IMG/VR virus record: IMGVR_UViG_3300020454_000107
Coordinates: 1-20,688 of that record
Length of the DNA: 20,688 nucleotides
Origin: a virus
Reading direction: 5' to 3' (one strand)
The translations under genes and the position numbers were made by a program. A model generated the notes under the pieces. It was not told the origin of the DNA. It saw only the letters and a list, made by a program, of their open reading frames with translations, and made no database searches. Each line of letters opens with the position of its first letter. The stretch's first letter is position 1. Below, piece after piece: positions 3,979 to 16,443 of this stretch.

Positions 3979-5354
3979 TGGAAACACTTGAAGTCACCAT
4001 CCTTGAGAACCTCATTTATAATGAAGAGTATTCTCGGAAGGTAATCCCTTTTATTGAACCAGACTATTTCCAAGAACAAGGTCAGAAGTTAGTCTTTGAA
4101 GAGACCGTACAGTTTATTACTAAGTATGATACTCAAATAACTGTAGAGGCACTTCTTATTGAAGTATCAAATCGTAAAGATCTCACAGAACAAACACTTC
4201 AAGACATTCAACAGTTAGTAGGTTGTCTTGAGAAACGTCCACAAGATCATCAATGGTTATTAGATTCTACTGAGAAGTGGTGTAGAGAACGTGCTATCTA
4301 CTTAGCACTCATGGAGTCTATTAGTATTGCTGATGGTCAAGATGATAAGAAAACTCAAGATGCTATTCCTACAATATTATCTGATGCTCTAGCAGTATCC
4401 TTTGATAATAATATAGGACACGATTATTTTGGTAATGTTGAAGAACGTTATGAGTACTACCATAAGAAGGAAGAAAAAATCCCATTCGACCTTGAATATT
4501 TTAACAAGATTACAAAGGGTGGTCTACCGAATAAAACTCTCAACGTTGCTCTCGCTGGCACAGGTGTTGGAAAATCTTTATTCATGTGTCATGTGGCTAG
4601 CAGTGTCCTCTTCCAAGGAAAAAATGTTCTCTACATTACGATGGAAATGGCAGAGGAAAAGATTGCGGAGAGGATTGATGCTAATCTACTTAATGTCAAT
4701 ATACAAGACATAACAGATCTTCCTAAACCAATGTTTGAAGGGAAGATACAAAATCTTTTAACTAAGACACAGGGACAACTTATAATTAAGGAGTACCCTA
4801 CTGCATCTGCTCATTCAGGACATTTTAAAGCATTGCTAAATGAATTAGCATTGAAGAAATCATTTAGACCTGATATAATTTTTATTGATTACTTAAATAT
4901 ATGTGCATCATCGAGGTATCGTGGTAATTCAACTGTCAACTCTTACTCGTATATTAAAGCGATTGCAGAGGAGCTTCGTGGTCTTGCTGTCGAGTCTAAT
5001 GTACCGATTGTTAGTGCTACTCAAACTACTCGTGCTGGTTTTGGCAACAGCGATGTTGACCTTACTGACACTTCAGAATCCTTTGGACTCCCTGCTACTG
5101 CTGACCTTATGTTCGCTCTCATATCTACTGAGGAGTTGGAAGGTCTCAACCAAATAATGGTTAAGCAATTAAAGAATAGATATAATGACCCTACAATGTT
5201 CAAGAGATTTATTGTGGGTATAGATCGTGCCAAGATGAGACTATATGATGTTGAACAGAATGCACAGGAAGGTGTAGTTGATAATGGACATGATAAGGAG
5301 GATACTCCTGAGACAAAGTTTAAAGATAAGTTTGGAGGTTTTAGTTTTTCATGA
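3978..5354 (+). CDS. 41: gp41 replicative DNA helicase (DnaB family)
   Basis: Hexameric 5'-3' helicase of the T4-type replisome. 458 residues, close to T4 gp41 (475). The N-terminal 150 residues form the helical domain. Walker A is AGTGVGKS at 193-200, with TMEM at 221-224 after it. Walker B is IIFIDYLN with D304. The H3 segment SATQTTR (346-352) carries Q349, and KQLKNRYND (396-404) holds candidate arginine-finger residues. The C-terminus is acidic and ends in a short FGGFSFS tail. It starts within the uvsX stop and overlaps the next gene by 4 bases. No primase gene follows directly, so the primase (gp61 in T4) must lie elsewhere. Confidence 0.95.
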   Translation: METLEVTILENLIYNEEYSRKVIPFIEPDYFQEQGQKLVFEETVQFITKYDTQITVEALLIEVSNRKDLTEQTLQDIQQLVGCLEKRPQDHQWLLDSTEKWCRERAIYLALMESISIADGQDDKKTQDAIPTILSDALAVSFDNNIGHDYFGNVEERYEYYHKKEEKIPFDLEYFNKITKGGLPNKTLNVALAGTGVGKSLFMCHVASSVLFQGKNVLYITMEMAEEKIAERIDANLLNVNIQDITDLPKPMFEGKIQNLLTKTQGQLIIKEYPTASAHSGHFKALLNELALKKSFRPDIIFIDYLNICASSRYRGNSTVNSYSYIKAIAEELRGLAVESNVPIVSATQTTRAGFGNSDVDLTDTSESFGLPATADLMFALISTEELEGLNQIMVKQLKNRYNDPTMFKRFIVGIDRAKMRLYDVEQNAQEGVVDNGHDKEDTPETKFKDKFGGFSFS

Positions 5355-5851
5355 TAATACCTTTAGAGATGATGGGTGATCCTACTGAGATTGATTACCC
5401 AGACAGAAGACAGTTCCCATGTGATAAGACTGTAGAAAAGTGGAAGTCTATAGGACATCTTTATGTTAACTATACTGGATTATTATTAGAGGAGTATAAA
5501 GGAGTTCCTGAGTGGTGTATTGACGTGAAGGAATATCTTGTCGGTAAATATAATTTACAAGATGCTTGTTCATCTGTTTATTGTATGCCACCAGGAACTA
5601 TTATGCCAGAGCATAGGGATACTTATCCTCGGTATAAGGCATTACATAATCTTGACAAACTAGAAAATATCTGTAGAATATTAATATTCCTAAATGACTG
5701 GGAATCAGGACATTACTTTGAGGTTGACACAAAACCTGTAGTGAACTGGACTAAGGGAGAATATATAATGTGGCGAGGTGACACTCCGCATATTGCGGCT
5801 AACGTTGGATCAACCAACAGATATACTATGCAAATTACTGCACATGACTAA
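5351..5851 (+). CDS. 2OG-Fe(II) oxygenase, aspartyl/asparaginyl hydroxylase-like
   Basis: 166 residues with a double-stranded beta-helix iron-site pattern: H88-x-D90 in MPEHRDTYPR, distal H147 in GDTPHIAANVG, and R157 in NRYTMQI as the probable 2-oxoglutarate carboxylate ligand. The segment ICRILIFLNDWESGHYFEVD between them is typical of small 2-oxoglutarate dioxygenases that hydroxylate proteins or small molecules. Its start overlaps the helicase stop by 4 bases (ATGA) and its end overlaps the next gene by 8. The substrate cannot be told from sequence. It is the first of several such proteins here; it is only distantly similar to those at 11436 and 15856, so it is not a local duplicate. Confidence 0.75.
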   Translation: MIIPLEMMGDPTEIDYPDRRQFPCDKTVEKWKSIGHLYVNYTGLLLEEYKGVPEWCIDVKEYLVGKYNLQDACSSVYCMPPGTIMPEHRDTYPRYKALHNLDKLENICRILIFLNDWESGHYFEVDTKPVVNWTKGEYIMWRGDTPHIAANVGSTNRYTMQITAHD

Positions 5852-6152: not shown

Positions 6153-6500
6153 ATGAGTCCAAGAAGATATGACATACACGACATACCTGGAATAGGTGGA
6201 TTCTATACTAAGAAAGAAGTAGATCTCCTAATTAAGTCTGCCGTGGACGAAGCAAAAGCAATTGATGAAGCTTCTATGCGTAAGCATAATAGAGACGCAA
6301 CGGTTATCTCTATGATTCTAGGATTTACAGCATTAGCATTATTTGTAGATGGTTTATTAAGAATTTTAGGAATCATTCCACCATTTATGGATATAGATGT
6401 TAATGTTATTGATAAGATTGCAGAGAGAGTTGAGAATGATATGTTACCTTTGATTCAAGATACAGTTAAGAAGATGCCGACTGTACCTAAGCCATGGTAG
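6153..6500 (+). CDS. Small membrane protein, 115 aa
   Basis: Not recognised. The start is fixed by a near-perfect Shine-Dalgarno sequence. The N-terminal 48 residues are soluble and probably helical (KKEVDLLIKSAVDEAKAIDE). One hydrophobic segment at about 51-75 (VISMILGFTALALFVDGLLRILG) is followed by a Pro-containing turn and an amphipathic stretch (VIDKIAERVENDMLPLIQDTV) that could form a coiled coil. The stop overlaps the sulfotransferase start by 7 bases. With the preceding gene it makes a pair of small membrane proteins between the helicase and the accessory cassette. Confidence 0.65.
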   Translation: MSPRRYDIHDIPGIGGFYTKKEVDLLIKSAVDEAKAIDEASMRKHNRDATVISMILGFTALALFVDGLLRILGIIPPFMDIDVNVIDKIAERVENDMLPLIQDTVKKMPTVPKPW

Positions 6501-7222
6501 TTGACTCTTTAATATCAAGAGATGTCCCTCAGCGTAGGGCAGTTATAGATGATCTTGTGGATAAGTATCCAGACTATTGTTCATCATTTACTTTTAAATT
6601 AAAACGAGGATTACCTGAACAAGTAATTCATAGAGATGGTTTTATTAATTGTTATCTTGATGTAAAGAAAAAATTAGTATATCTGCATGTTGATAAGTGT
6701 GGAAGTACTTCAATAACATCAGCATTTATCTCTGAGGGTATGACGTTTATACCTTTGGAGAATTTTCGTAGAGCCAAGGATTATGAAACTATGGCAGAGT
6801 TTTTGGTTGAGAGTGGATATACTTTTTTTGCTATGACTAGAGACCCATGTACTAGGTGGGTATCTGGAATGAATGAATTTATGTGTAGATATAAACCACC
6901 ATTTGATTGGGTATTAAAACAAGTTAAGAATAAGAAGTATGTGTATGATGAACACACTGCACCTCAACATTTATTTTTAAGATTGTGTTTGGAATATAAT
7001 GGTAAACTTAAGTTATTAAAATTAGATAGTAACTTAAAAAAGAAGGTTAATAATTTTCTTGATATGGACTTAGATATACAGCATTTGAGACAGTCTAAAT
7101 ATTTTGTGCCGAATTATACTATGTTGGCAAAGAAGTTATTCCATCAGGTTGTAGAACCTGACATGGAAGAATTTAATAAACTATACGCTATGGATTATGA
7201 ACTATACAACTCCGCTGACTGA
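6494..7222 (+). CDS. Sulfotransferase (PAPS-dependent, P-loop fold)
   Basis: 242 residues. The sequence LHVDKCGSTSIT (64-75) matches the 5'-phosphosulfate-binding loop of sulfotransferases, with K68, G70, S71 and T72. MTRDPCTRWVSG (114-125) matches the 3'-phosphate-binding RdPxxRxxS motif, with R116, R121 and S124. These two motifs, about 45 residues apart, define enzymes that move sulfate from 3'-phosphoadenosine-5'-phosphosulfate to carbohydrate or protein hydroxyls. The length is short but complete for the core. The host would have to supply PAPS; no PAPS synthesis gene is visible. It opens the sugar-enzyme cassette and overlaps its neighbours by 7 and 26 bases, so sulfation of a glycan made by the cassette is a reasonable inference. 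Confidence 0.8.
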   Translation: MVVDSLISRDVPQRRAVIDDLVDKYPDYCSSFTFKLKRGLPEQVIHRDGFINCYLDVKKKLVYLHVDKCGSTSITSAFISEGMTFIPLENFRRAKDYETMAEFLVESGYTFFAMTRDPCTRWVSGMNEFMCRYKPPFDWVLKQVKNKKYVYDEHTAPQHLFLRLCLEYNGKLKLLKLDSNLKKKVNNFLDMDLDIQHLRQSKYFVPNYTMLAKKLFHQVVEPDMEEFNKLYAMDYELYNSAD

Positions 7223-7835
7223 TCAAGTAGTAAGAGATTCAACAATTCATCAGTTTGAACAAACCATTGCTAATTTTTATGGTTCTACTTATGGAGTTGC
7301 TGTTGACTCATGTACACATGCATTAGAATTGTGTATGAGATATGAGAAGTATGATTTTGTAGAAGTACCAACTAATACATATATCTCAGTCCCATTCATC
7401 ATGAAGAAGATTGGATTAAAGAAGTGGAGATGGGAAGATAAAAAATGGGAAAAATATTATTATATTGGCAGCACCAACATTGTTGATGCTGCTGTTTTGT
7501 GGGAGAAGAATTCATATATTCCTGGTACATATTTTTGTTTAAGTTTTCAACAAAGAAAACATCTACCACTAGGACGTGGTGGTATGATTCTTACTGATAA
7601 TCCAACGGCATATTATACTCTAAAAAGAATGTCGTGTGATGGTAGAGATTTTTATAGACCTTGGAGAGATCAAGATATAGACATTATGGGATATCATTAT
7701 TACATGACACCAGAGAAGGCTTCTGAAGGATTGGAAAAATTTCAAACAGCAGTGAATACACCAGTTAAAGATTGGTCTTATAAGGATTACCCCTATCTTC
7801 CTGATATGTCGGTGTTTAAAAATGACAAAGTTTGA
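7197..7835 (+). CDS. Shortened DegT/DnrJ/EryC1/StrS aminotransferase
   Basis: PLP-dependent sugar aminotransferase family, by motif. FYGSTYGVAVDSCTHALEL (27-45) matches the cofactor-phosphate loop. IVDAAV (95-100) carries D97, the Asp that pairs with the pyridine nitrogen. FCLSFQQRKHLPLGRGGM (113-130) carries the likely Schiff-base K121 and the GxGG after it. GYHYYMTPEKASEGLEKF resembles the domain linker. Family members are usually about 370 residues; this is 212, with tight loops and almost no C-terminal domain, but the frame is intact. It may be a minimal enzyme or may need a partner subunit. It overlaps the sulfotransferase by 26 bases and GT copy 1 by 14. The expected substrate is a keto-sugar nucleotide or keto-cyclitol. 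Confidence 0.75.
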   Translation: MNYTTPLTDQVVRDSTIHQFEQTIANFYGSTYGVAVDSCTHALELCMRYEKYDFVEVPTNTYISVPFIMKKIGLKKWRWEDKKWEKYYYIGSTNIVDAAVLWEKNSYIPGTYFCLSFQQRKHLPLGRGGMILTDNPTAYYTLKRMSCDGRDFYRPWRDQDIDIMGYHYYMTPEKASEGLEKFQTAVNTPVKDWSYKDYPYLPDMSVFKNDKV

Positions 7836-8700
7836 TAATAAATTAAAAGGTTTACCTCCTATATTCTATTTGAATATGGATCATAGAACTGAGAGGAAGG
7901 AACACCTTGAGAATGAATTTAGTAAATGGGGTATTACAGACTATACTAGGGTGTCTGCAAATAGATTCCATACATCAAAAATAAATGAGTGGGGACGTAA
8001 GTTAGATTTAATGTTGCTTGCTCCTTCCGATGCTTCTATTGTGATGAATGAATTTTGGACGTTTATTGATTGGTATAATTCTGGTATCTCAGAAAACATG
8101 CTTTTAATTCAAGATGATTTAGCATTAGATTTAATTGAGTATTGGCCGTTTGATTGGAATACTTTATATAAAAATCTTCCATATAATTGGGATATTATTC
8201 AGTTCTATTATTGTCATAATGACTTTTTAAATATGCATCTATCTCCTAGGATTGGTGAGAGTTCATCTGCTGCATGTATTCTTATTAACAGATACTTTGT
8301 TGAGAAATTAATGAAGATGCATCTACAACCTGATGGATCATTTAAATTGGACAATAGTCTAAGAGATGTTACCATTCCTAAAGAGTGTTATAGCAGTGAT
8401 GATTGGTTAATATATCAGGTTGGAAAATCATACACACTACCTTTACTTTGTTTAAATCAAAGGTTAGCAACTAGACCAGATAACAGACAAGAGGCAAGTA
8501 AAGAAGAGGAAATGTATGATGAAGTAGTTGCTCAATATCATAACAAGTTGTATGATATACTTGCTACTACTGTTACTAGAAAGTGGTGGGAAAATAGTAG
8601 TAAGAACTATAGTGTAGATGATATATTAAGTTGGGGTTCTCCAATACATCATGAGATGAGAATTCAATTACCACAGTATGATGGGAAGGGACCAGTCTAA
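7822..8700 (+). CDS. GT25-like glycosyltransferase, copy 1
   Basis: 292 residues, first of six related genes. The N-terminus IFYLNMDHRTERKEHLE matches the opening strand of family-25 (LPS-type) glycosyltransferases, with R22 and R25. The acidic motif is LLIQDD (D98, D99), with Gln where the family has Glu. The array signature follows: FDWNTLYKNLPYNWDIIQ (about 110-127). INRYFVEKL (155-163) and SDDW (192-195) correspond to the GT25 'SrraaekLl' and second-Asp positions, so both acidic sites are kept. The C-terminal NYSVDDILSWGSP is a diverged form of the DDFFTYG block of copies 3-6. A cytosolic enzyme transferring a sugar from a nucleotide sugar is expected; acceptor unknown. It overlaps the aminotransferase by 14 bases and touches copy 2 by one. 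Confidence 0.7.
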   Translation: MTKFDNKLKGLPPIFYLNMDHRTERKEHLENEFSKWGITDYTRVSANRFHTSKINEWGRKLDLMLLAPSDASIVMNEFWTFIDWYNSGISENMLLIQDDLALDLIEYWPFDWNTLYKNLPYNWDIIQFYYCHNDFLNMHLSPRIGESSSAACILINRYFVEKLMKMHLQPDGSFKLDNSLRDVTIPKECYSSDDWLIYQVGKSYTLPLLCLNQRLATRPDNRQEASKEEEMYDEVVAQYHNKLYDILATTVTRKWWENSSKNYSVDDILSWGSPIHHEMRIQLPQYDGKGPV

Positions 8701-9557
8701 TGCATGAAAAATTAATAGGACTGCCAAAGATCATTTACCTTAATTCTAAACATCATCCAGAAAGAGATGATGAGATGAGGAATCATTTTGAGTGGTTGGG
8801 TATAGAGAACTATGAAAGGTATGAAAAAGAATATACTAATAAAAATATTGAAGAGGATTTAGGTGTTCATGAATGGTTGGAGTTAATAGAGGATGACTTT
8901 ACTGCATTAAGTGTAGAAGAGTTATCGATTACATTAGATCATTACAATGCAATCGTTAAATGGTTTGATACTAACGATGAAGATGTTTGCATCATAATGG
9001 ATGATGTTGTGAATATGGACACTGTAGAACATTGGCATTTTGATTGGCAGACTCTTTATAGTAAACTTCCTTATAATTGGGATTGTATTCAGTTATTTGT
9101 TAATTCAACTAATGAACAGATTAGAACTTTTTTACATCCTTGGAGGAATACATCTAGATCTACTAGATGTTATATGATTACCAGACAGTTTGCTAAGAAG
9201 GTAAAGAAGTTTTATGGCAACTTTCGTTTATATTATCCAAATAAAGATAGGAGTCATCATATACCTGATGAAGGAAGTATTGAGGTAACTCTATTTGATT
9301 TGGGAATAACTTATAGTTGTCCTGTATTCCGTCTAACAAGTATTTTTATGGAGAGTGATGAACTTGATATTAGAATGTGTAGAGATAGATTATCTTCACA
9401 TGCTATAGAATACTTTTGGGAATATGCATCAACTCTACAATCAAATGAAGAATTTTTTAATTATGGATATGGTCAGGATTGGAAACGAATAGTTACTTTT
9501 GATATGAAGTCAGAATGGGTTCATGAGAATAGACAGAAGATGTTGATATGGATTTAA
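8700..9557 (+). CDS. GT25-like protein, copy 2 (diverged active site)
   Basis: 285 residues. It is recognisable as a paralogue by the start GLPKIIYLNSKHHPER, the signature FDWQTLYSKLPYNWDCIQ (114-131), FLHP (144-147) and the C-terminal NEEFFNYGYGQD. The nucleotide-sugar site is altered: the acidic triplet is MDD (100-102) rather than EDD, and the second acidic position, VDYF in other copies, reads VTLF with T197 replacing Asp. The N-terminal Arg pair is reduced to R22. An extra acidic stretch (EEDLGVHEWLELIEDD) lies at residues 51-66. The frame is open throughout, so the gene is probably still expressed. It may be an inactive partner or have a changed activity. It overlaps copies 1 and 3. Confidence 0.6.
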   Translation: MHEKLIGLPKIIYLNSKHHPERDDEMRNHFEWLGIENYERYEKEYTNKNIEEDLGVHEWLELIEDDFTALSVEELSITLDHYNAIVKWFDTNDEDVCIIMDDVVNMDTVEHWHFDWQTLYSKLPYNWDCIQLFVNSTNEQIRTFLHPWRNTSRSTRCYMITRQFAKKVKKFYGNFRLYYPNKDRSHHIPDEGSIEVTLFDLGITYSCPVFRLTSIFMESDELDIRMCRDRLSSHAIEYFWEYASTLQSNEEFFNYGYGQDWKRIVTFDMKSEWVHENRQKMLIWI

Positions 9558-10450
9558 ATAATAAGTTAAAAGGTATGCCTCATGTATACTACTTCAATCT
9601 GGATAATAGAACAGATAGAAGACAATACATGGAGAGACAATTTAAGAGATGGGGTATTAAGTATACTAGATTATCTGGTACTAAGTATCTTGGATCTCAA
9701 GTTAATTCTTGGTGTCACTTAATTATAGACTATGAGAACTATACGTTACTACCACCTATCGCTGCTAATGCAATAAGTCATCTTGAGTTTTTAAAGAAGT
9801 GGTATGCAGAGAGTGATGATTCTTATCTTATATTGATGGAGGATGATTATGATTTGAATTGTATTAAGAGATGGCATTTTGATTGGGAATATCTTATGAG
9901 TAGACTTCCTTATGATTGGGATTGTCTTCATATGGGATTTGAAAATCCAGAGGGGATGCCAATGTTTTTACATCCTATACAGTCAGCACATGATTTTGGA
10001 CCTGTTCTTTTGCATAGAGAATATGTTGAGAAACTTATTGATATTCATTGTGTGGGAGATAGGTATAGATTATTAAATACAGTTGCTAATGCTGCTTGGA
10101 ATTCTGGTAAAGCAGTTGCTGGATCTGGAACTGTTGATTATTTTATGGTTCATTGTGGTAGAACATATTGTATTCCTCTTATTACAATTAACACATCCTT
10201 TGGTAGTTTTGAAGATAATAGTGCTTTACAAAAATTTTATAGAGAGAGTGGAGATATTAAAGCTAGGAATGCATATTATTTTTGGTGGAAGCATGAGAGA
10301 GATAGGTTTACTTTAGATGATTTTTTTACCTATGGAACTTCTAAAGATGTGAAGATGACACTAGACACAGAGAAGTTTTTGAATTATGATATAACTAATA
10401 AGATGAGTGAACTCTACGGAGAAAAGTATCTAGACAATTATAGACCATGA
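9548..10450 (+). CDS. GT25-like glycosyltransferase, copy 3
   Basis: 300 residues; one of the best-conserved copies. VYYFNLDNRTDRRQYME (13-29) is close to the GT25 N-terminal motif, with R21, R24 and R25. LILMEDD (94-100) has the full acidic triplet E98-D99-D100. The signature FDWEYLMSRLPYDWDCLH follows, then GPVLLHREYVEKLIDIH and GTVDYF with D197. The end is DRFTLDDFFTYGTSKDVKM plus a 35-residue tail. All expected catalytic positions are present, so activity is likely. It is closest by eye to copy 6, sharing NLDNRxDRRxYMExQF and the EDDYDLN context, which suggests a recent duplication or gene conversion. It overlaps copies 2 and 4 by 10 and 4 bases. Confidence 0.75.
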   Translation: MDLNNKLKGMPHVYYFNLDNRTDRRQYMERQFKRWGIKYTRLSGTKYLGSQVNSWCHLIIDYENYTLLPPIAANAISHLEFLKKWYAESDDSYLILMEDDYDLNCIKRWHFDWEYLMSRLPYDWDCLHMGFENPEGMPMFLHPIQSAHDFGPVLLHREYVEKLIDIHCVGDRYRLLNTVANAAWNSGKAVAGSGTVDYFMVHCGRTYCIPLITINTSFGSFEDNSALQKFYRESGDIKARNAYYFWWKHERDRFTLDDFFTYGTSKDVKMTLDTEKFLNYDITNKMSELYGEKYLDNYRP

Positions 10451-11436
10451 CTGTTAAAAAATACAATATGCACGATAAGTTGAGGCACTTGCCTCATATA
10501 CTTTATACCAATGTAAAGTCACAGACTAATAGGAAGCATTGGATGGAATATCATTTTAGAGTTTATGGTATGGCATTTACTAGGATTGAACAACCTCCAG
10601 CAAGTGAATTACCTAAAGACTTCCATAAACAATTAGATGGTGATTATGAGGAATCATCATTAATGATTAATTGGTATTCTTCTCAAATTTTAGATCTATT
10701 GCGTAAGTGGTTAGATGATACTAAAGGAACTGATGAACCCCATATCATTTTAATGGAAGATGATTATGATATAAGGATACAAGAGTATTGGAATTTTAGT
10801 TGGGATTATATGATGGAGCAATTACCCTATGGGTGGGATTGTATTCAGTTAGGATTTGAATCTCCAGATGTAGTTCCATTTTATTTGCATCCTACTAAAC
10901 CAGAGTATTCTCTTGGTGCTACTTTAATGAGTAGACATTATGCGGAGAAGTTATTAGATCTTCATTACATTAATGGTAAGTATAAGTTTGATAATGTCAT
11001 TGCAAATTCTGTGTATATGAATAGGGATTCTGGGATACATGATGGTATGACATTTGAGGGAACATCAGGATCACCTGATTATTTTTTAGCACAGTCTGGC
11101 AATTGTTATTCTTTACCACTTATTCCCATAGTCCCATACTTCACAGGTATCAGTGATGCTGGTGTTAATGGAATGGATACTATTGATGATAGTAAGTGGA
11201 AACCCAGACCTAGTTTTTTAAAATGTTATAAAGCATATTGGGAGTGGTGGACACAGGATAGAGATAACTTTACTGCTGATGAATTCTTTAGTTATGGTAA
11301 GGATAATGATAATCTTATGACAAGAGATATCTCACAGTGGAGTGATAAATATTTTATTGAACAAGGATCTCATCAGAGACGTGAATTTCTCAGTAGATTT
11401 GGTTTGGTATTGAATAATCATGGTATTCAAAATTAA
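10447..11436 (+). CDS. GT25-like glycosyltransferase, copy 4
   Basis: 329 residues, the longest copy. ILYTNVKSQTNRKHWME is a weaker N-terminal motif, keeping R29 but not the first Arg. IILMEDDYD has the full triplet E104-D105-D106. The signature is FSWDYMMEQLPYGWDCIQ, then FYLHP, LGATLMSRHYAEKLLDLH and SGSPDYF with D211. The extra length lies mainly in residues 188-207, an insert rich in Gly, Asp and Met before the second Asp, in a proline-rich segment near 222-250, and at the C-terminus (SHQRREFLSRFGL). Catalytic positions are kept. It ends exactly at the A of the next gene's ATG, the 2OG oxygenase, so the two are likely co-translated. Confidence 0.72.
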   Translation: MTVKKYNMHDKLRHLPHILYTNVKSQTNRKHWMEYHFRVYGMAFTRIEQPPASELPKDFHKQLDGDYEESSLMINWYSSQILDLLRKWLDDTKGTDEPHIILMEDDYDIRIQEYWNFSWDYMMEQLPYGWDCIQLGFESPDVVPFYLHPTKPEYSLGATLMSRHYAEKLLDLHYINGKYKFDNVIANSVYMNRDSGIHDGMTFEGTSGSPDYFLAQSGNCYSLPLIPIVPYFTGISDAGVNGMDTIDDSKWKPRPSFLKCYKAYWEWWTQDRDNFTADEFFSYGKDNDNLMTRDISQWSDKYFIEQGSHQRREFLSRFGLVLNNHGIQN

Positions 11437-12014
11437 TGAAATTTGATGTATATGATGACATAATATCCCCTACATATCAAGATGTTCTTGAGAGTTTATT
11501 GTGTAGCCCAGATGTATCTTGGAGTTGGCAAGACTCTATGGATAATGGACAATATTTAAAAGGTGGTCATCCTCAATTTGTTTGTGATATTTTTGAAAAT
11601 GGTAGAGCATTTGATACTGCAATATATCACAGTATGATTGGATTACTAACTAAAATTGTAGATGATATAATTCCTAACTATCGCCCTATAAGAATACGAG
11701 GTATATTACATACACCGAGAGTAGATGGTTTTAGGCATTATCCACCACACACAGACACTACTGCTGCTGGTGGTATGAGTGCAATATATTATCCTACTGA
11801 TTCAACTGGTGATACTTATTTGTTTGAAGAATCTGATATAAATGATAATGTAGTAATTGATAGATTTAAACATCTTTGGGAACCAATAGATAGTGTTACT
11901 CCAAAGAAAGGAAGAGTTATTTTATTTCCTTCTAATAATTATCATGCAGGATCACCAACAACGAGTGATAGAAGGTTACTCATAAACATAAACTTTTTCC
12001 CTAAAGAATTATGA
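11436..12014 (+). CDS. 2OG-Fe(II) oxygenase inside the GT array
   Basis: 192 residues. The iron-site residues are H105-x-D107 in HYPPHTDTTA and H170 in NNYHAGSP, with R179/R180 in TSDRRLLININF as the 2-oxoglutarate-binding Arg. GDTYLF (125-130) and KKGRVILFPS (157-166) are the usual strands between. This pattern fits prolyl-4-hydroxylase-like phage dioxygenases. It lies exactly between GT copies 4 and 5, sharing bases with both (1 and 4), and its product is therefore likely made together with them. In collagen biosynthesis a 2OG hydroxylase makes the hydroxyl that a GT25 enzyme then glycosylates; whether that applies here is inference. The substrate is unknown. Confidence 0.78.
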   Translation: MKFDVYDDIISPTYQDVLESLLCSPDVSWSWQDSMDNGQYLKGGHPQFVCDIFENGRAFDTAIYHSMIGLLTKIVDDIIPNYRPIRIRGILHTPRVDGFRHYPPHTDTTAAGGMSAIYYPTDSTGDTYLFEESDINDNVVIDRFKHLWEPIDSVTPKKGRVILFPSNNYHAGSPTTSDRRLLININFFPKEL

Positions 12015-12832
12015 CATTAAAGGATAAATTAAAAGGACTTCCTAGGGTTTATTATTTTAATAATGATAAGACGTTAGATGAACATATGGATAGGAGTCTA
12101 AGTAACTTAGATGTTATGGACTATAGTTGTATGCGTATCAAGTATACTAGTGAGAATAGTTCTGAATGGAAAGATTTAATTTTAAATAGATCAGATTATA
12201 AACTTCCTGTTAGTGTTGCTGGATTTTCTATATCAGTTCTTGAATTTTTAAAAGACTGGTTAGATGTTACGGAACAAGATCAAGATCCTGAATTAATAAT
12301 TATGAGGGATACTATTGATTGGGAAGTTGCTCAAACAGATCTATGTTATACATGGGATTTTGATTGGAATTATATTCGTACAAGATTGCCATATGACTGG
12401 GATTGTTTTCAATTTGGGTTTGAGAATTTACACTACATTCCTTTTTATCTTCATCAGATAATGCCAGCAACTACCTTTGGTCCTTCTCTATTGAATAGAA
12501 GATATGTTAAAAAGTTAGTTAGGTTACATTGTAAGGATGGTAAGTATGATTTGACTGGTAAGATTGCAAATTTAAATTTTGGTCTTAAGTCTGGAACAGT
12601 TGATTATTTTATAGGTCATAATGGTAAAACTTATTGTCTTCCTTTATTACCCAATAATCCAAAGTTCTTCCCAAGCAATACTAAAAAATTTAAAGTGGTA
12701 CGTGCTTGTAAATTAGCGTACTATGATTGGTGGGTTAATGAGAGTAAGAAGTTTGGTCTTGAAGAGATCTTTACTTATGGTAAGACAAACGATCTTGGTA
12801 TGATCAGGAAAACTATGAATTATTATAATTAA
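12011..12832 (+). CDS. GT25-like protein, copy 5 (degenerate acidic motif)
   Basis: 273 residues. Clearly a paralogue: VYYFNNDK at the start, FDWNYIRTRLPYDWDCFQFGFE signature, FYLHQ, TFGPSLLNRRYVKKLVRLH, GTVDYFIGHNGKTYCLPL and EEIFTYGKTND. But the triplet expected as EDD reads IIMRDTID (R99-D100-T101), the N-terminal Arg residues are lost (NNDKTLDEH), and about 10 residues are inserted after the triplet. The second Asp (D198) is kept. The gene is full length without a frameshift, which argues against a simple decaying pseudogene. It starts in an ATGA overlap with the oxygenase, and copy 6 follows after one base. It is either non-catalytic or uses a different metal arrangement. Confidence 0.65.
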   Translation: MTLKDKLKGLPRVYYFNNDKTLDEHMDRSLSNLDVMDYSCMRIKYTSENSSEWKDLILNRSDYKLPVSVAGFSISVLEFLKDWLDVTEQDQDPELIIMRDTIDWEVAQTDLCYTWDFDWNYIRTRLPYDWDCFQFGFENLHYIPFYLHQIMPATTFGPSLLNRRYVKKLVRLHCKDGKYDLTGKIANLNFGLKSGTVDYFIGHNGKTYCLPLLPNNPKFFPSNTKKFKVVRACKLAYYDWWVNESKKFGLEEIFTYGKTNDLGMIRKTMNYYN

Positions 12833-12833
12833 T

Positions 12834-13643
12834 ATGCTTAAGTATGATAAGGGTAAATTGAGAAATTTTCCTCATGTATATTATGTAAATCTTGATAATA
12901 GAATTGATAGAAGAGAATACATGGAGAAGCAGTTTGAGTTTTGGAGATTAGATTTTACTAGAGTCTCCTCTTCAAAATATGCTTTGTCTAAGTCAAAGGA
13001 ATGGGGACCAAAAAAAGTATCTGGTAAGGTTACTGGTATGCCAGCATATGTTGTTGGTAATGCAGTTACTCATTTAGAGTTTATGAAAGAATGGTTGGAT
13101 ACTTCAAATGATCCTGTATTACTTTTGATGGAAGATGATTATGATTTGAATCTTTTTCAATATTGGAATTTTAATTGGGATTACCTAATGGATAGGATTC
13201 CATATGATTGGGACTGTCTTCAAATTGGATATGAATCTACTAAGTTTATACCATTCTTTTTACATCCAAAATTAAACCATACATTTTTTGGTCCTGTTAT
13301 TTTACAGAGAGATTATGTTGAGAAGATATTGAGTTTACATTCTGATGGTGATAAGTGGAATTTTGAAAAGGTATTAGGAGATAAAAAATTTAATAAGTCT
13401 GCTGGAACAGTAGATTATTTTATTGGACATACTGGTAAGACATATTGTATTCCGTTAATCACTACTAACGATACACTGACAAGTGGTGAAAATAATGTTA
13501 TTATTAATAGAATACATCATAAACATTCTAGACGTGCTTATTACCATTGGTGGATGACACAGCATAAGAATTTTAGTTTGGATGATTTCTTTACTTATGG
13601 TAAAATAAATGATCATAAGATGATAATTTCTACTGTCAGATAA
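12834..13643 (+). CDS. GT25-like glycosyltransferase, copy 6
   Basis: 269 residues, the shortest copy yet with a full active-site set. VYYVNLDNRIDRREYME (15-31) has R23, R26 and R27; LLLMEDDYDLN has E100-D101-D102; the signature is FNWDYLMDRIPYDWDCLQ; then FFLHP, FGPVILQRDYVEKILSLH and GTVDYFIGH with D194, and the end is NFSLDDFFTYGKINDHKM. It stops soon after that last block, so that block marks the end of the conserved unit and the extra tails of copies 3 and 4 are additions. Closest by eye to copy 3. One base separates it from copy 5 before and from the amidinotransferase after. Confidence 0.75.
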   Translation: MLKYDKGKLRNFPHVYYVNLDNRIDRREYMEKQFEFWRLDFTRVSSSKYALSKSKEWGPKKVSGKVTGMPAYVVGNAVTHLEFMKEWLDTSNDPVLLLMEDDYDLNLFQYWNFNWDYLMDRIPYDWDCLQIGYESTKFIPFFLHPKLNHTFFGPVILQRDYVEKILSLHSDGDKWNFEKVLGDKKFNKSAGTVDYFIGHTGKTYCIPLITTNDTLTSGENNVIINRIHHKHSRRAYYHWWMTQHKNFSLDDFFTYGKINDHKMIISTVR

Positions 13644-13644
13644 T

Positions 13645-14649
13645 ATGTACGCTACAAATGAATGGGATAAATTAAAGAAGGTTATAGTTGGTGTTGCAGA
13701 TTATGCTACTATGCCTCCAGTAGAGAAGGATACTCGTACAATTAACTATGCTGGTGTAAAACCAAAGAAGAAGTTGTTTGGTTATGGTAAAGAAGAATAT
13801 CTTCCTATAAAAGTTGGAGCATTCCCAGATCAAGTAATTCAAGAAGCAAATGAGGACTTAGAAGTTTTTGTTAAATTCTTACAAGGTGAAGGTGTAGAAG
13901 TTGTACGTCCAAAAAGAGAACCAGTAAAGTATTATAATTTTTGTCCTAGGGATTCTGTGTTTGTACATAGTAATCTCGCTCTAGCAACACCAATGCCTTT
14001 AAGAAGTAGGAGAGGTGAGTGGAGAGCAATGAGTGAGCATTTACCAAATGCTGTAGAGATGCCATGTCAATATATTGATGATCTTTATAATGAGGAATGT
14101 ATTGGTAATCCTAGTGTTCTAGCATTGAATGAAGTTACTCCAGCATTTGATGCTGCAAATACACTCAGGGCAAATAATGATATTTTATATTTGGTATCTA
14201 ATAGTGGTAATGAATTAGGTGCTGAGTTATTACAGAATCAGTTACATGAAGCAGGATGTGATGCAGATGTTCATTTACTTAGAGATGTCTATTCATATTC
14301 TCATATTGATACCACTGTAGCATTTTTAAGAGAAGGACTTATATTAGCAAATCCATCTAGGATAAAAGATAAGGATGATTTACCAGCACCTTTTAATAGT
14401 TGGGATATTGTTTATGCACCACAAGCAATTGACATAGGATCTTATACTGGATATAATAATATGTCAGTCTGGGTGAATATGAATTTATTCAGTGTCAATC
14501 AAGGTTTGGTTGCTCTAGAAGAAACTCAAGAACCAACTAGAAAACTTCTTGAGAGTCATGGTATAGAATGTGCTATGCTTCCAATGAGACATCAAAGAAC
14601 TTTAAGTGGTGGATATCATTGTGTAACTCTTGATTTGGAGAGAGGATGA
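13645..14649 (+). CDS. Amidinotransferase (arginine:glycine amidinotransferase-like)
   Basis: 334 residues. Enzymes of this family move the amidino group of arginine to an amine by a Cys-His-Asp mechanism. All three are identifiable by comparison with human AGAT: D169 in TPAFDAANTLRANNDI, H220 in YSHIDTTVAFL, and C326 in LSGGYHCVTLDLERG (human GGGFHCWTCDV). The N-terminal NFCPRDSVFV (98-107) matches the substrate-binding region. Length is near complete, with the C-terminus ending just after the catalytic Cys segment, shorter than AGAT. The family also includes StrB-type enzymes that amidinate aminocyclitols in streptomycin synthesis. Lying between the GT array and a sugar dehydrogenase, an amino-sugar or cyclitol acceptor is plausible, but guanidinoacetate synthesis cannot be excluded. 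Confidence 0.85.
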   Translation: MYATNEWDKLKKVIVGVADYATMPPVEKDTRTINYAGVKPKKKLFGYGKEEYLPIKVGAFPDQVIQEANEDLEVFVKFLQGEGVEVVRPKREPVKYYNFCPRDSVFVHSNLALATPMPLRSRRGEWRAMSEHLPNAVEMPCQYIDDLYNEECIGNPSVLALNEVTPAFDAANTLRANNDILYLVSNSGNELGAELLQNQLHEAGCDADVHLLRDVYSYSHIDTTVAFLREGLILANPSRIKDKDDLPAPFNSWDIVYAPQAIDIGSYTGYNNMSVWVNMNLFSVNQGLVALEETQEPTRKLLESHGIECAMLPMRHQRTLSGGYHCVTLDLERG

Positions 14650-15872
14650 ATATAGGTTTTATTGGTCTTGGTAAACTTGGCATGCCTTGTGCTGAGGAGA
14701 TTGCTAAGGCAGGACATTTTGTGTTTGGTTATGATGTTGAACCTAGAGATACATCTCTAGTAGATGTTCAATCTTCAATTAAAGATGTTGTAAATAAATC
14801 AAAGATAATTTTTATTGCTGTTCCTACACCACACGATAAAGATTATGATGGTAGCAAACCATGCATGCATTTAGAACCAAAAGATTTTAATTATAGTATT
14901 GTTGAGAGTGTATTGGATGAAGTTAATAAGTACGTAGATAATCAATTAATTGTTTTAATCTCTACAGTTTTACCTGGTACTACAAGAGAGAGATTCACAC
15001 CAATGAAGGGTAGGTTTGTTTATAATCCTTATCTAATTGCTATGGGTACTGTTGCATTTGATTTTACAAATCCAGAGATAGTAATGATTGGTACTGAAGA
15101 TGGTACTGAGACTGGTGATGCTAAAGAGTTGATTCAACTTTATAAATCTATTGCACAGAATGATCCTCCATATATTGTTGGTACATGGGATGAGTGTGAA
15201 TGTATAAAAGTTTTTTACAATACCTTTATTAGTAATAAGATTAGTTTTGTTAACATGATTCAAGATGTTGCTGAGAGGCAAGGGAATATTAATGTTGATG
15301 TTGTAACTGGTGCTTTGTGTAAGGCAGGAACTAGAATTATAAATTCTTCTTACATGAAGGCAGGTATGGGTGATGGTGGTGCTTGTCATCCTAGAGATAA
15401 TATTGCTCTTAGATTTTTGGCAAAAAAATTAAGACTTGGATATGATTTGTTTAAAGGTATTATGTTATCCAGAGAAGAGCAAGCAAGGAACTTAGCATTA
15501 AAATTAGTTGAACTTGCATGGGATAATAAAATGCCTATTGTGATTCATGGTAAAGCATATAAACCAAGAGTATCTTATACAGAAGGAAGTTATAGTTTAT
15601 TGGTTGGTCATTTTTGTAAGGAAGTAGCAGCACCATACACAGAAGATATACCTGTGAAGTATGTTGATAAATGTACAGGAGATACATATGATAGCAATAA
15701 ACCTGCTGTGTTCTTACTTGCCCATAGTGCAACAACAACGTATAGATACTGGGACAATCCTGATAATGATGAATTGTATTGTGAAATTCCAGAAGGTAGT
15801 ATAGTTGTTGATCCTTGGAGGAAGTTTACTTCAGATACTTTAGAGGTTATCCATTATGGCAAGACTAGATGA
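14646..15872 (+). CDS. UDP-glucose/GDP-mannose dehydrogenase family enzyme
   Basis: 408 residues. NAD-dependent oxidation of a nucleotide sugar (typically UDP-glucose to UDP-glucuronate) is the family reaction. The Rossmann motif is GFIGLGKLGMP (4-14). AVPTP (58-62) and ISTVLPGTT (105-113) are the usual family motifs. The catalytic Cys is C247 in AGMGDGGACHPRDN; ordinary enzymes read GPGFGGSCFPKD, so the Cys is kept but its surround differs. HGKAYKP (301-307) replaces the usual G-x-a-F/Y-K. The C-terminal third is present. ATGA overlap with the amidinotransferase, 17-base overlap with the next gene. The product would feed a glycosyltransferase such as those upstream. The exact sugar is not determinable. 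Confidence 0.85.
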   Translation: MNIGFIGLGKLGMPCAEEIAKAGHFVFGYDVEPRDTSLVDVQSSIKDVVNKSKIIFIAVPTPHDKDYDGSKPCMHLEPKDFNYSIVESVLDEVNKYVDNQLIVLISTVLPGTTRERFTPMKGRFVYNPYLIAMGTVAFDFTNPEIVMIGTEDGTETGDAKELIQLYKSIAQNDPPYIVGTWDECECIKVFYNTFISNKISFVNMIQDVAERQGNINVDVVTGALCKAGTRIINSSYMKAGMGDGGACHPRDNIALRFLAKKLRLGYDLFKGIMLSREEQARNLALKLVELAWDNKMPIVIHGKAYKPRVSYTEGSYSLLVGHFCKEVAAPYTEDIPVKYVDKCTGDTYDSNKPAVFLLAHSATTTYRYWDNPDNDELYCEIPEGSIVVDPWRKFTSDTLEVIHYGKTR

Positions 15873-16443
15873 GATGATAATGTTCAGTATATCTTGTAGA
15901 CGATACAAGGTTAGTAACTGGGCATATAAGAAAAAACAATTATTAGATATGGTCAATGCTGATTGGGCAATGTCTGAGAGACCTCAAGATAAAGAGGTTA
16001 TTGATTGTCATACTGATTATTTTTCTACTAATGGTAGAGCATCTTATTTTGATGTATGGTATAATATTTTGAAAGAAGATCTTGATGATGCTCTTAGTCA
16101 AACTGGATTACCTTTAGCAGGTCCAGAGATGTGGCAATTGTGGACTCAAAAATATAGATCAGGACATTATCATGGAGCACATAATCATGGATGCTCAAAT
16201 TTATCTTGTATTTTATATGTTGAGTTTGATCCACAAGTTCATGAGTCTACAGCATTCTATCAACCGTTTCCAGATCCTTGGTTTGGAACTCTACACAAGA
16301 TACAACCTCAAATAGAGGAAGGGGATATTTTAATGTTTCCTGCTGTACTCTTACATGAATCTCCAGTATCACGTTCTGATAAAACCAGAACTGTTATGTC
16401 CTTTAATATACCAGTAGGTAATTCTTATGAAAAATCAAATTGA
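15856..16443 (+). CDS. Putative 2OG-Fe(II) oxygenase, HxH type
   Basis: 195 residues from ATG 15856, preferred because GAGG at 15843-15846 is well placed; ATG 15874 or 15880 would also work and would avoid the 17-base overlap. The pattern HYHGAHNHGCSNLSCILYV (104-122), then EEGDILMFPAVLLHESPV with H167 and SDKTRTVMSFNIP with R178, resembles the small 2OG-Fe(II) oxygenases with an H-x-H-rich first motif that are common in cyanophages. A canonical HxD is not present, since HNH (109-111) stands in its place, so the metal ligands are uncertain. The family call is moderately sure; activity is unproven. It overlaps the MazG gene by 17 bases. Confidence 0.6.
   Translation: MARLDEMIMFSISCRRYKVSNWAYKKKQLLDMVNADWAMSERPQDKEVIDCHTDYFSTNGRASYFDVWYNILKEDLDDALSQTGLPLAGPEMWQLWTQKYRSGHYHGAHNHGCSNLSCILYVEFDPQVHESTAFYQPFPDPWFGTLHKIQPQIEEGDILMFPAVLLHESPVSRSDKTRTVMSFNIPVGNSYEKSN

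What the first reader, a model, noticed from the sequence alone, without database searches (positions are those of the whole stretch)
7822..13643. Tandem array of six GT25-like paralogues in a phage
Seen: six ORFs (7822, 8700, 9548, 10447, 12011, 12834) share the same ordered blocks: an N-terminal x-YxN motif, an acidic triplet at about residue 97-106, the signature (L/I)PYxWDxxx, FLHP (variant in copies 1 and 5), an xRxYVEKL-type helix, VDYF, and FFTYG near the end. Established: the blocks follow the order of family-25 LPS-type glycosyltransferases. Inference: repeated local duplication has made a diversified set, as expected if each copy transfers a different sugar or acts on a different acceptor, or if glycan variation is selected by host resistance. 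About 5.8 kb of a compact phage genome is a large investment.
Basis: partly seen in the sequence, partly recalled or inferred. Interest (0 to 1): 0.8.

Follow-up and report, generated by a model that had tools for sequence, protein, structure and literature searches.

The report
Phage glycosyltransferase paralogue set in sugar cassette
A marine virus of cyanobacteria carries six related sugar-attaching enzymes, duplicated long ago and inherited together across many viruses beside genes that should make an unusual guanidine-bearing sugar, so this is a specialised glycan-building kit rather than a recent burst of copying.

Summary
The six ORFs are real, exact and homologous (pairwise BLASTP E 1e-15 to 1e-90), split 4+2 by a 2OG-Fe(II) oxygenase gene. 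They are distant GT25-type enzymes: AlphaFold2 of copy 6 (pLDDT 94) matches COLGALT1, mimivirus R655 and bacterial GT25 galactosyltransferases, and close relatives pass the Pfam GT25 cut-off. The recent-duplication idea fails: each copy founds its own orthologous clade, and sets of five or six recur in fixed order in 28 contigs between gp41 and mazG, with a mini DegT aminotransferase and a StrB1-like amidinotransferase; 99 of 99 amidinotransferase loci carry the GT family. Copies 3, 4 and 6 keep the EDD metal motif. Copy 1 is fixed as QDD. Copy 5 has lost both outer acids in all 31 orthologues yet is under purifying selection, so it is probably a non-catalytic partner. Copy 2 is eroding. A second cassette type lies beside tail-fibre-like genes. 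Best reading: an assembly line that makes a guanidino-amino-sugar glycan (sulfate and uronate in type A) and attaches it to a virion surface protein or host LPS; the acceptor is not shown. I found no description of this cassette in the open-access literature. New variant of known phage glycan clusters.

The parts
7822..8700 (+). copy 1 (g1), GT25-like, QDD at the metal motif
   Evidence: phrog_2835 E 3e-32; clade of 31 loci, support 1.0; QDD in 31/31
8700..9557 (+). copy 2 (g2), GT25-like, fastest evolving, motif eroding
   Evidence: phrog_2835 E 5e-34; motif EDD in 21/53, variable otherwise; median dN/dS 0.45
9548..10450 (+). copy 3 (g3), GT25-like, intact EDD
   Evidence: phrog_2835 E 2e-43; PF01755 E 2e-4, below cut-off; EDD 32/32; median dN/dS 0.21
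10447..11436 (+). copy 4 (g4), GT25-like, intact EDD; the one copy that varies in presence
   Evidence: phrog_2835 E 2e-27; clade of 15 loci, support 1.0; absent from 15 otherwise complete sets
11436..12014 (+). 2OG-Fe(II) oxygenase gene between copies 4 and 5, seen there only in this window
   Evidence: PF13640 E 5.5e-7, above cut-off; not between g4 and g5 in the syntenic contigs
12011..12832 (+). copy 5 (g5), GT25 fold with both outer acids of the metal motif lost; probably non-catalytic
   Evidence: RD or KD then T/I/S/C/Q in 31/31; AF2 pLDDT 89.4; Foldseek COLGALT1 E 2e-6; median dN/dS 0.26
12834..13643 (+). copy 6 (g6), GT25-like, intact EDD
   Evidence: phrog_2835 E 5e-45; EDD 54/54; AF2 pLDDT 94.3; Foldseek COLGALT1 4.5e-9, R655 2e-8
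7197..7835 (+). mini DegT/DnrJ/EryC1/StrS aminotransferase (212 aa; no C-terminal domain), cassette core
   Evidence: PF01041 E 7e-16; PLP Lys and Asp 63/63, relatives 195-234 aa
13645..14649 (+). StrB1-like L-arginine:inosamine-phosphate-type amidinotransferase, cassette core
   Evidence: PDB 1bwd E 4.5e-56; catalytic Asp 57/57, His 57/57, Cys 56/57
14646..15872 (+). UDP-glucose/GDP-mannose dehydrogenase-like enzyme (uronic acid donor)
   Evidence: PF03721 2e-16, PF00984 4e-15; TIGR03026 2e-41, below its cut-off
6494..7222 (+). sulfotransferase
   Evidence: PF03567 E 4e-10, above cut-off; next to the mini DegT in type A contigs
15856..16443 (+). 2OG-Fe(II) oxygenase downstream of the cassette
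   Evidence: PF13759 E 7e-13
5351..5851 (+). small 2OG/Asp-Arg-hydroxylase-like gene at the upstream border, present in nearly all type A contigs
   Evidence: PF05118 E 0.016, below cut-off; synteny

Best explanation
The array is the transferase section of a conserved cyanophage glycan cassette. Proposed working: (i) the mini DegT enzyme makes an amino sugar or cyclitol; (ii) the StrB1-like enzyme moves an amidino group from arginine onto it, giving a guanidino sugar; (iii) in type A the dehydrogenase supplies a uronic acid and the sulfotransferase adds sulfate, while in many type B cassettes a carbamoyltransferase is present instead; (iv) the GT25-like paralogues with an intact metal motif (copies 3, 4, 6, and perhaps 1) each add one residue in a fixed order; (v) copy 5 is a retained non-catalytic partner, as the GT-like accessory domain is in lysyl hydroxylases. 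The acceptor is either a virion surface protein, which I favour slightly, or host LPS. Shown here: homology, predicted fold, motif states, orthology, synteny and active-site residues. Inferred: donors, acceptor, order of steps and the role of copy 5.
For: Fold and family. Orthologous set: clades; 13 contigs with all six and 15 with all but copy 4. Fixed gene order gp41-2OG-SULF-DegTt-G1-G2-G3-(G4)-G5-G6-AMID-UGDH-MazG. Tight linkage: of 99 loci with the amidinotransferase, 99 carry the GT family and 95 the mini DegT; 34 loci were found by an amidinotransferase query that made no use of the GTs. Chemistry: closest solved relative is StrB1, E 4.5e-56, against about 1e-25 for glycine amidinotransferase; active sites conserved; in other phages the mini DegT lies beside GDP-mannose 4,6-dehydratase-like genes, as for an NDP-amino-sugar pathway. 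Selection: median dN/dS 0.19-0.45 in all groups. Protein acceptor: COLGALT1 acts on hydroxylysine; type B cassettes lie just downstream of small tail-fibre-like genes (phrog_6942 tail fibre and a C1q domain at L052).
Against: No substrate was tested. Type A cassettes lie among replication genes, not tail genes, which fits host-surface change as well. The small proteins beside type B cassettes have no significant Pfam match themselves; only the L052 neighbours hit a tail-fibre family. No collagen repeats in type A records. Bacterial GT25 enzymes mostly build LPS. Structural matches are modest in TM-score (about 0.5). Activity of the mini DegT, which lacks the usual C-terminal domain, is unproven.
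Confidence: 0.62

Rival explanations
1. The cassette modifies the host's LPS or capsule during infection, to exclude competing phages or mask the cell; the GT copies are O-antigen-type transferases. (This overlaps with the best explanation and differs in the acceptor.)
For: PF01755 is the LPS biosynthesis family; the single-copy relative of many cyanophages closes an LPS-like cluster and passes the cut-off. Jumbo-phage survey PMC7824862 argues that such cyanophage clusters diversify outer polysaccharide. Type A lies with replication genes, fitting earlier expression (inference).
Against: The genes read here around the array include no recognised polymerase, flippase or ligase; the set is stable rather than polymorphic; type B cassettes adjoin tail-fibre-like genes.
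Confidence: 0.38
2. The cassette makes a diffusible guanidino-glycoside (aminoglycoside-like metabolite) rather than a surface glycan.
For: StrB1-like amidinotransferase plus StrS-family aminotransferase recall streptidine synthesis; type B adds a NodU/CmcH-type carbamoyltransferase. PMC7824862 predicts a halogenated sugar/amino-acid metabolite for another cyanophage cluster.
Against: No cyclitol synthase, exporter or self-resistance gene recognised in the window; five or six GT25-like paralogues suit a bound glycan better; a lytic phage gains little from a secreted product.
Confidence: 0.12
3. The GTs glycosylate phage DNA to protect it from restriction.
For: PHROG label 'glucosyltransferase'; type A position next to gp41/mazG; 2OG oxygenases nearby.
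Against: GT25 fold, not the GT-B fold of T4 AGT/BGT (own knowledge); no thymidylate-synthase/hydroxymethylase family gene in three type A records; the TET search had no positive control and says nothing.
Confidence: 0.06
4. Recent local amplification in this virus gives dosage or a diversity reservoir.
For: Six paralogues in one orientation.
Against: One orthologue per locus in nearly every clade, copies only 22-46% identical to copy 6, fixed order across contigs.
Confidence: 0.02

Closest known systems
CAZy GT25 / Pfam PF01755 (bacterial beta-1,4-galactosyltransferases; COLGALT1; mimivirus R655)
   Same: GT-A fold; N-terminal nucleotide-binding block and EDD motif; profile match to R655 E 6e-5; Foldseek E 4.5e-9 to COLGALT1
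   Different: Array copies mostly score below the Pfam cut-off; near-invariant features (PYxWD, W87, W115, R159) are their own; one copy has lost the metal motif
Single-copy GT25-like gene closing the LPS cluster of P-SSM2-type cyanophages (phrog_2835)
   Same: Same protein family, about 28-32% identical to copy 6
   Different: Separate clade, other location beside hli/petF or tail fibre, present in addition to the array, no amidinotransferase beside it
Synechococcus phage S-SCSM2R cassette (PQ898602, 229.6-237 kb)
   Same: Same core: four GT-family genes, mini DegT, 2OG oxygenase, amidinotransferase
   Different: Type B order, radical SAM and GT2 genes, no sulfotransferase or UDP-glucose dehydrogenase annotated in the block; its deposited annotation names the genes one by one
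Streptidine pathway of streptomycin (StsC/StrS-type aminotransferase + StrB1)
   Same: Amination by a DegT/StrS-family enzyme, then amidination by a StrB1-like enzyme
   Different: Aminotransferase only 195-234 aa; embedded with GT25-like genes in phages; substrate unknown
Lysyl hydroxylase + collagen glycosyltransferase pairing (LH3, mimivirus L230/R699; PMC9546862)
   Same: 2OG oxygenase beside GT25-related enzymes; a GT-like accessory domain not needed for catalysis exists in LH enzymes
   Different: No collagen repeats in type A records; oxygenases here are separate small proteins

Membership tests
GT25 (PF01755) | GT-A fold | tested here: met
   AF2 pLDDT 94.3 (copy 6) and 89.4 (copy 5); Foldseek top hits GT25 enzymes
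GT25 (PF01755) | Sequence match above the Pfam gathering score | tested here: inconclusive
   Copies 3 and 6 below the cut-off (21.8 and 17.5 vs 24), others no match; relatives L007:9077 31.7, L058 24.7, P-SSM2 47.1 pass
GT25 (PF01755) | Acidic metal/nucleotide-sugar motif (EDD) | tested here: inconclusive
   Met in copies 3, 4, 6; QDD in 1, MDD in 2; not met in copy 5 (31/31 orthologues)
GT25 (PF01755) | Sugar transfer from a UDP-sugar | not testable with these tools
   needs enzyme assay
StrB1-type amidinotransferase | Asp-His-Cys active site and full-length similarity to StrB1 | tested here: met
   1bwd E 4.5e-56 over residues 4-333; D 57/57, H 57/57, C 56/57
StrB1-type amidinotransferase | Substrate inosamine phosphate | not testable with these tools
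   needs enzyme assay
DegT/DnrJ/EryC1/StrS aminotransferase | PLP lysine and aspartate | tested here: met
   63/63 each
DegT/DnrJ/EryC1/StrS aminotransferase | Full length with C-terminal domain | tested here: not met
   195-234 aa in all relatives, against 373-391 aa for solved members
Collagen-type hydroxylysine glycosylation | Collagen-like acceptor in the same genome | tested here: not met
   PF01391 in none of the type A records, which may be incomplete; in S-SCSM2R only (control rang)
LPS/O-antigen biosynthesis cluster | Export/polymerisation genes (Wzx, Wzy, ligase) in the cluster | not tested
   none recognised among the genes read in the window; no dedicated search run

The most novel reading that the evidence does not exclude
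A phage-borne assembly line that makes a guanidino-sugar glycan and attaches it, by a heteromeric set of active and inactive GT25 paralogues, to hydroxylated virion tail proteins: a viral analogue of collagen hydroxylation-glycosylation joined to streptomycin-type amidination.
Probability: 0.2. Interest if true: 0.85.

Novelty: new variant of a known kind. Interest (0 to 1): 0.52.

Why it matters
Cyanophage sugar genes are usually set aside as variable LPS islands. Here is a stable multi-gene set, conserved in order over many viruses, with readable chemistry (amination, amidination, sulfation) and a paralogue that lost its metal motif but is kept. It offers a testable route to the chemical structure of a phage-made glycan, and S-SCSM2R, an isolate on Synechococcus WH7803, carries a related cassette.

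Tried and rejected
Recent tandem amplification: rejected by orthology. Collagen acceptor: not found in type A. DNA glycosylation: no hydroxymethylase-family gene found; the TET search was uninformative because its control failed. A cellular donor: one scan of 84,980 genomes gave a single hit, a 6 kb contig binned as Euryarchaeota that carries repeated phage-like proteins and a type B cassette start, so probably phage; the scan used one peptide pattern, so distant cellular relatives are not excluded. Late-promoter motif TAAATA: not enriched (18 found, 38 expected). Specificity-determining columns: only three found, not informative. First outgroup tree held a wrong neighbour gene (SINGLE_L121_2255); removed and rerun. 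'Death domain' hit of copy 2 (E 8e-4, below cut-off) judged spurious. Two literature searches returned nothing; most subscription journals and bioRxiv preprints are not held, so absence of a prior report is weak evidence.
Full report
Observation. They are not an unbroken tandem: a 2OG-Fe(II) oxygenase gene (11436-12014) separates copies 4 and 5. Several listed motifs are not universal; in particular copy 5 has RDT in place of EDD.

Where it is. The window is a 20.7 kb virus record. DNA polymerase, UvsX and gp41 are about 81% identical in DNA to Prochlorococcus phage P-SSM2. In P-SSM2 the gp41-mazG interval holds a single gene; here it holds the cassette.

Family. PHROGs gives 'glucosyltransferase' phrog_2835 for all six. 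Pfam GT25 is reached only weakly by copies 3 and 6, but the P-SSM2 relative (47 bits), an S-SCSM2R relative (31.7) and L058 (24.7) pass the 24-bit cut-off. A 55-sequence profile finds mimivirus R655 (E 6e-5), aligned through the EDD motif. AlphaFold2 of copy 6 (pLDDT 94.3) matches human COLGALT1 (4.5e-9), R655 (2e-8) and beta-1,4-galactosyltransferases (3e-7), and many viral GT25 proteins.

Age of the set. In a tree of 265 unique homologues from IMG/VR and two isolates, each window copy has its own clade: g1 31 loci, g2 53, g3 32, g4 15, g5 31, g6 53 (54 sequences), with one sequence per locus except one locus with two in g6. g2 as a whole is weakly supported (0.28), but a 16-sequence core that holds the window copy is solid (100); g6 as a whole reaches 0.93 in FastTree but only 64 in the IQ-TREE run. 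Rooted on the single LPS-cluster gene of other cyanophages, all array copies form one clade (92). The sets are 13 loci with six and 15 with five lacking g4 (identical sequences counted once). A single LPS-type copy appears to coexist with the array in five type A contigs (judged from its position and low identity).

Catalytic state. EDD is fixed in g3 (32/32) and g6 (54/54) and nearly so in g4 (13 EDD, 2 EDE). g1 is QDD in 31/31. g2 is mixed. g5 has K or R for the first acid and a non-acid for the third in 31/31. The middle Asp stays conserved in all six groups. Median dN/dS is 0.19 (g1), 0.45 (g2), 0.21 (g3), 0.35 (g4), 0.26 (g5), 0.32 (g6), so g5 is not decaying. Its model keeps the fold (pLDDT 89.4; COLGALT1 E 2e-6). 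A precedent for a GT-like part not needed for catalysis is the accessory domain of lysyl hydroxylases mentioned in PMC9546862. In L041 g2 is split in two fragments.

Partners. Type A order is gp41-2OG-sulfotransferase-mini DegT-G1..G6-amidinotransferase-UDP-glucose dehydrogenase-MazG; type B is 2OG-G6-like-G2-like-GX-mini DegT-2OG-amidinotransferase-(GX)-(carbamoyltransferase); the smallest form has the mini DegT, amidinotransferase, a 2OG oxygenase and one GT. The amidinotransferase is closest to StrB1 (4.5e-56); the mini DegT keeps its PLP residues in 63/63. Of 99 amidinotransferase loci, 99 have the GT. Most loci were found through the GT and some contigs were fetched twice, so the fair test is the 34 loci found by the amidinotransferase query alone, all of which carry the GT. 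The link does not hold for every mini DegT: in other phages it lies beside GDP-mannose 4,6-dehydratase-like genes without a GT25-like gene (that enzyme name is from reading the sequence, not from a profile search).

Acceptor. Two lines favour a virion protein: animal and mimivirus GT25 relatives act on, or are proposed to act on, protein hydroxylysine (PMC9546862), and type B cassettes follow small tail-fibre-like genes. Against it, type A is far from recognised tail genes, and bacterial GT25 enzymes act in LPS synthesis. I leave this open with a slight lean.

Prior work. PMC7824862 describes cyanophage clusters with paralogous GTases and a second cluster with carbamoyltransferases and 2OG oxygenases, and proposes superinfection exclusion. 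PMC7029224 makes a similar case for pelagimyophages. I found no description of the GT25 paralogue set with an amidinotransferase in the held literature.

Noticed in passing
window 7197-7835: A miniature DegT-family aminotransferase (195-234 aa in 62 unique relatives) lacking the C-terminal domain but with its PLP residues; relatives also in Flavobacterium phages and huge metagenomic phages.
   Followed up: partly
window 11436-12014; L008 4728-5297: phrog_274, named 'DNA endonuclease V', and the P-SSM2 gene annotated denV match 2OG-Fe(II) oxygenase PF13640 instead; probable annotation error.
   Followed up: partly
L114: A 6 kb contig in a Euryarchaeota MAG carries three tandem paralogous phage-like proteins and the start of a type B cassette with two GTs; likely a mis-binned phage.
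   Followed up: partly
L065 15326-16843; L112 365-2164: NodU/CmcH-type carbamoyltransferases in type B cassettes (L065 by Pfam; L112 by sequence reading), the latter near a large radical-SAM-like gene.
   Followed up: no
Campylobacter phages CP220, CPt10 and others (hits H102-H113): Distant amidinotransferase relatives (23-25% identity) occur in Campylobacter phages.
   Followed up: no
record of L034 (G003), 34239-35024 minus strand: An extra GT copy, 40% identical to copy 6, lies outside both the array and the LPS-type site.
   Followed up: no
L041, between G1 and G3: Copy 2 is split into two fragments in this contig.
   Followed up: no
L073 2-538: C-terminal part of what looks like a second amidinotransferase upstream of a type B cassette.
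   Followed up: no
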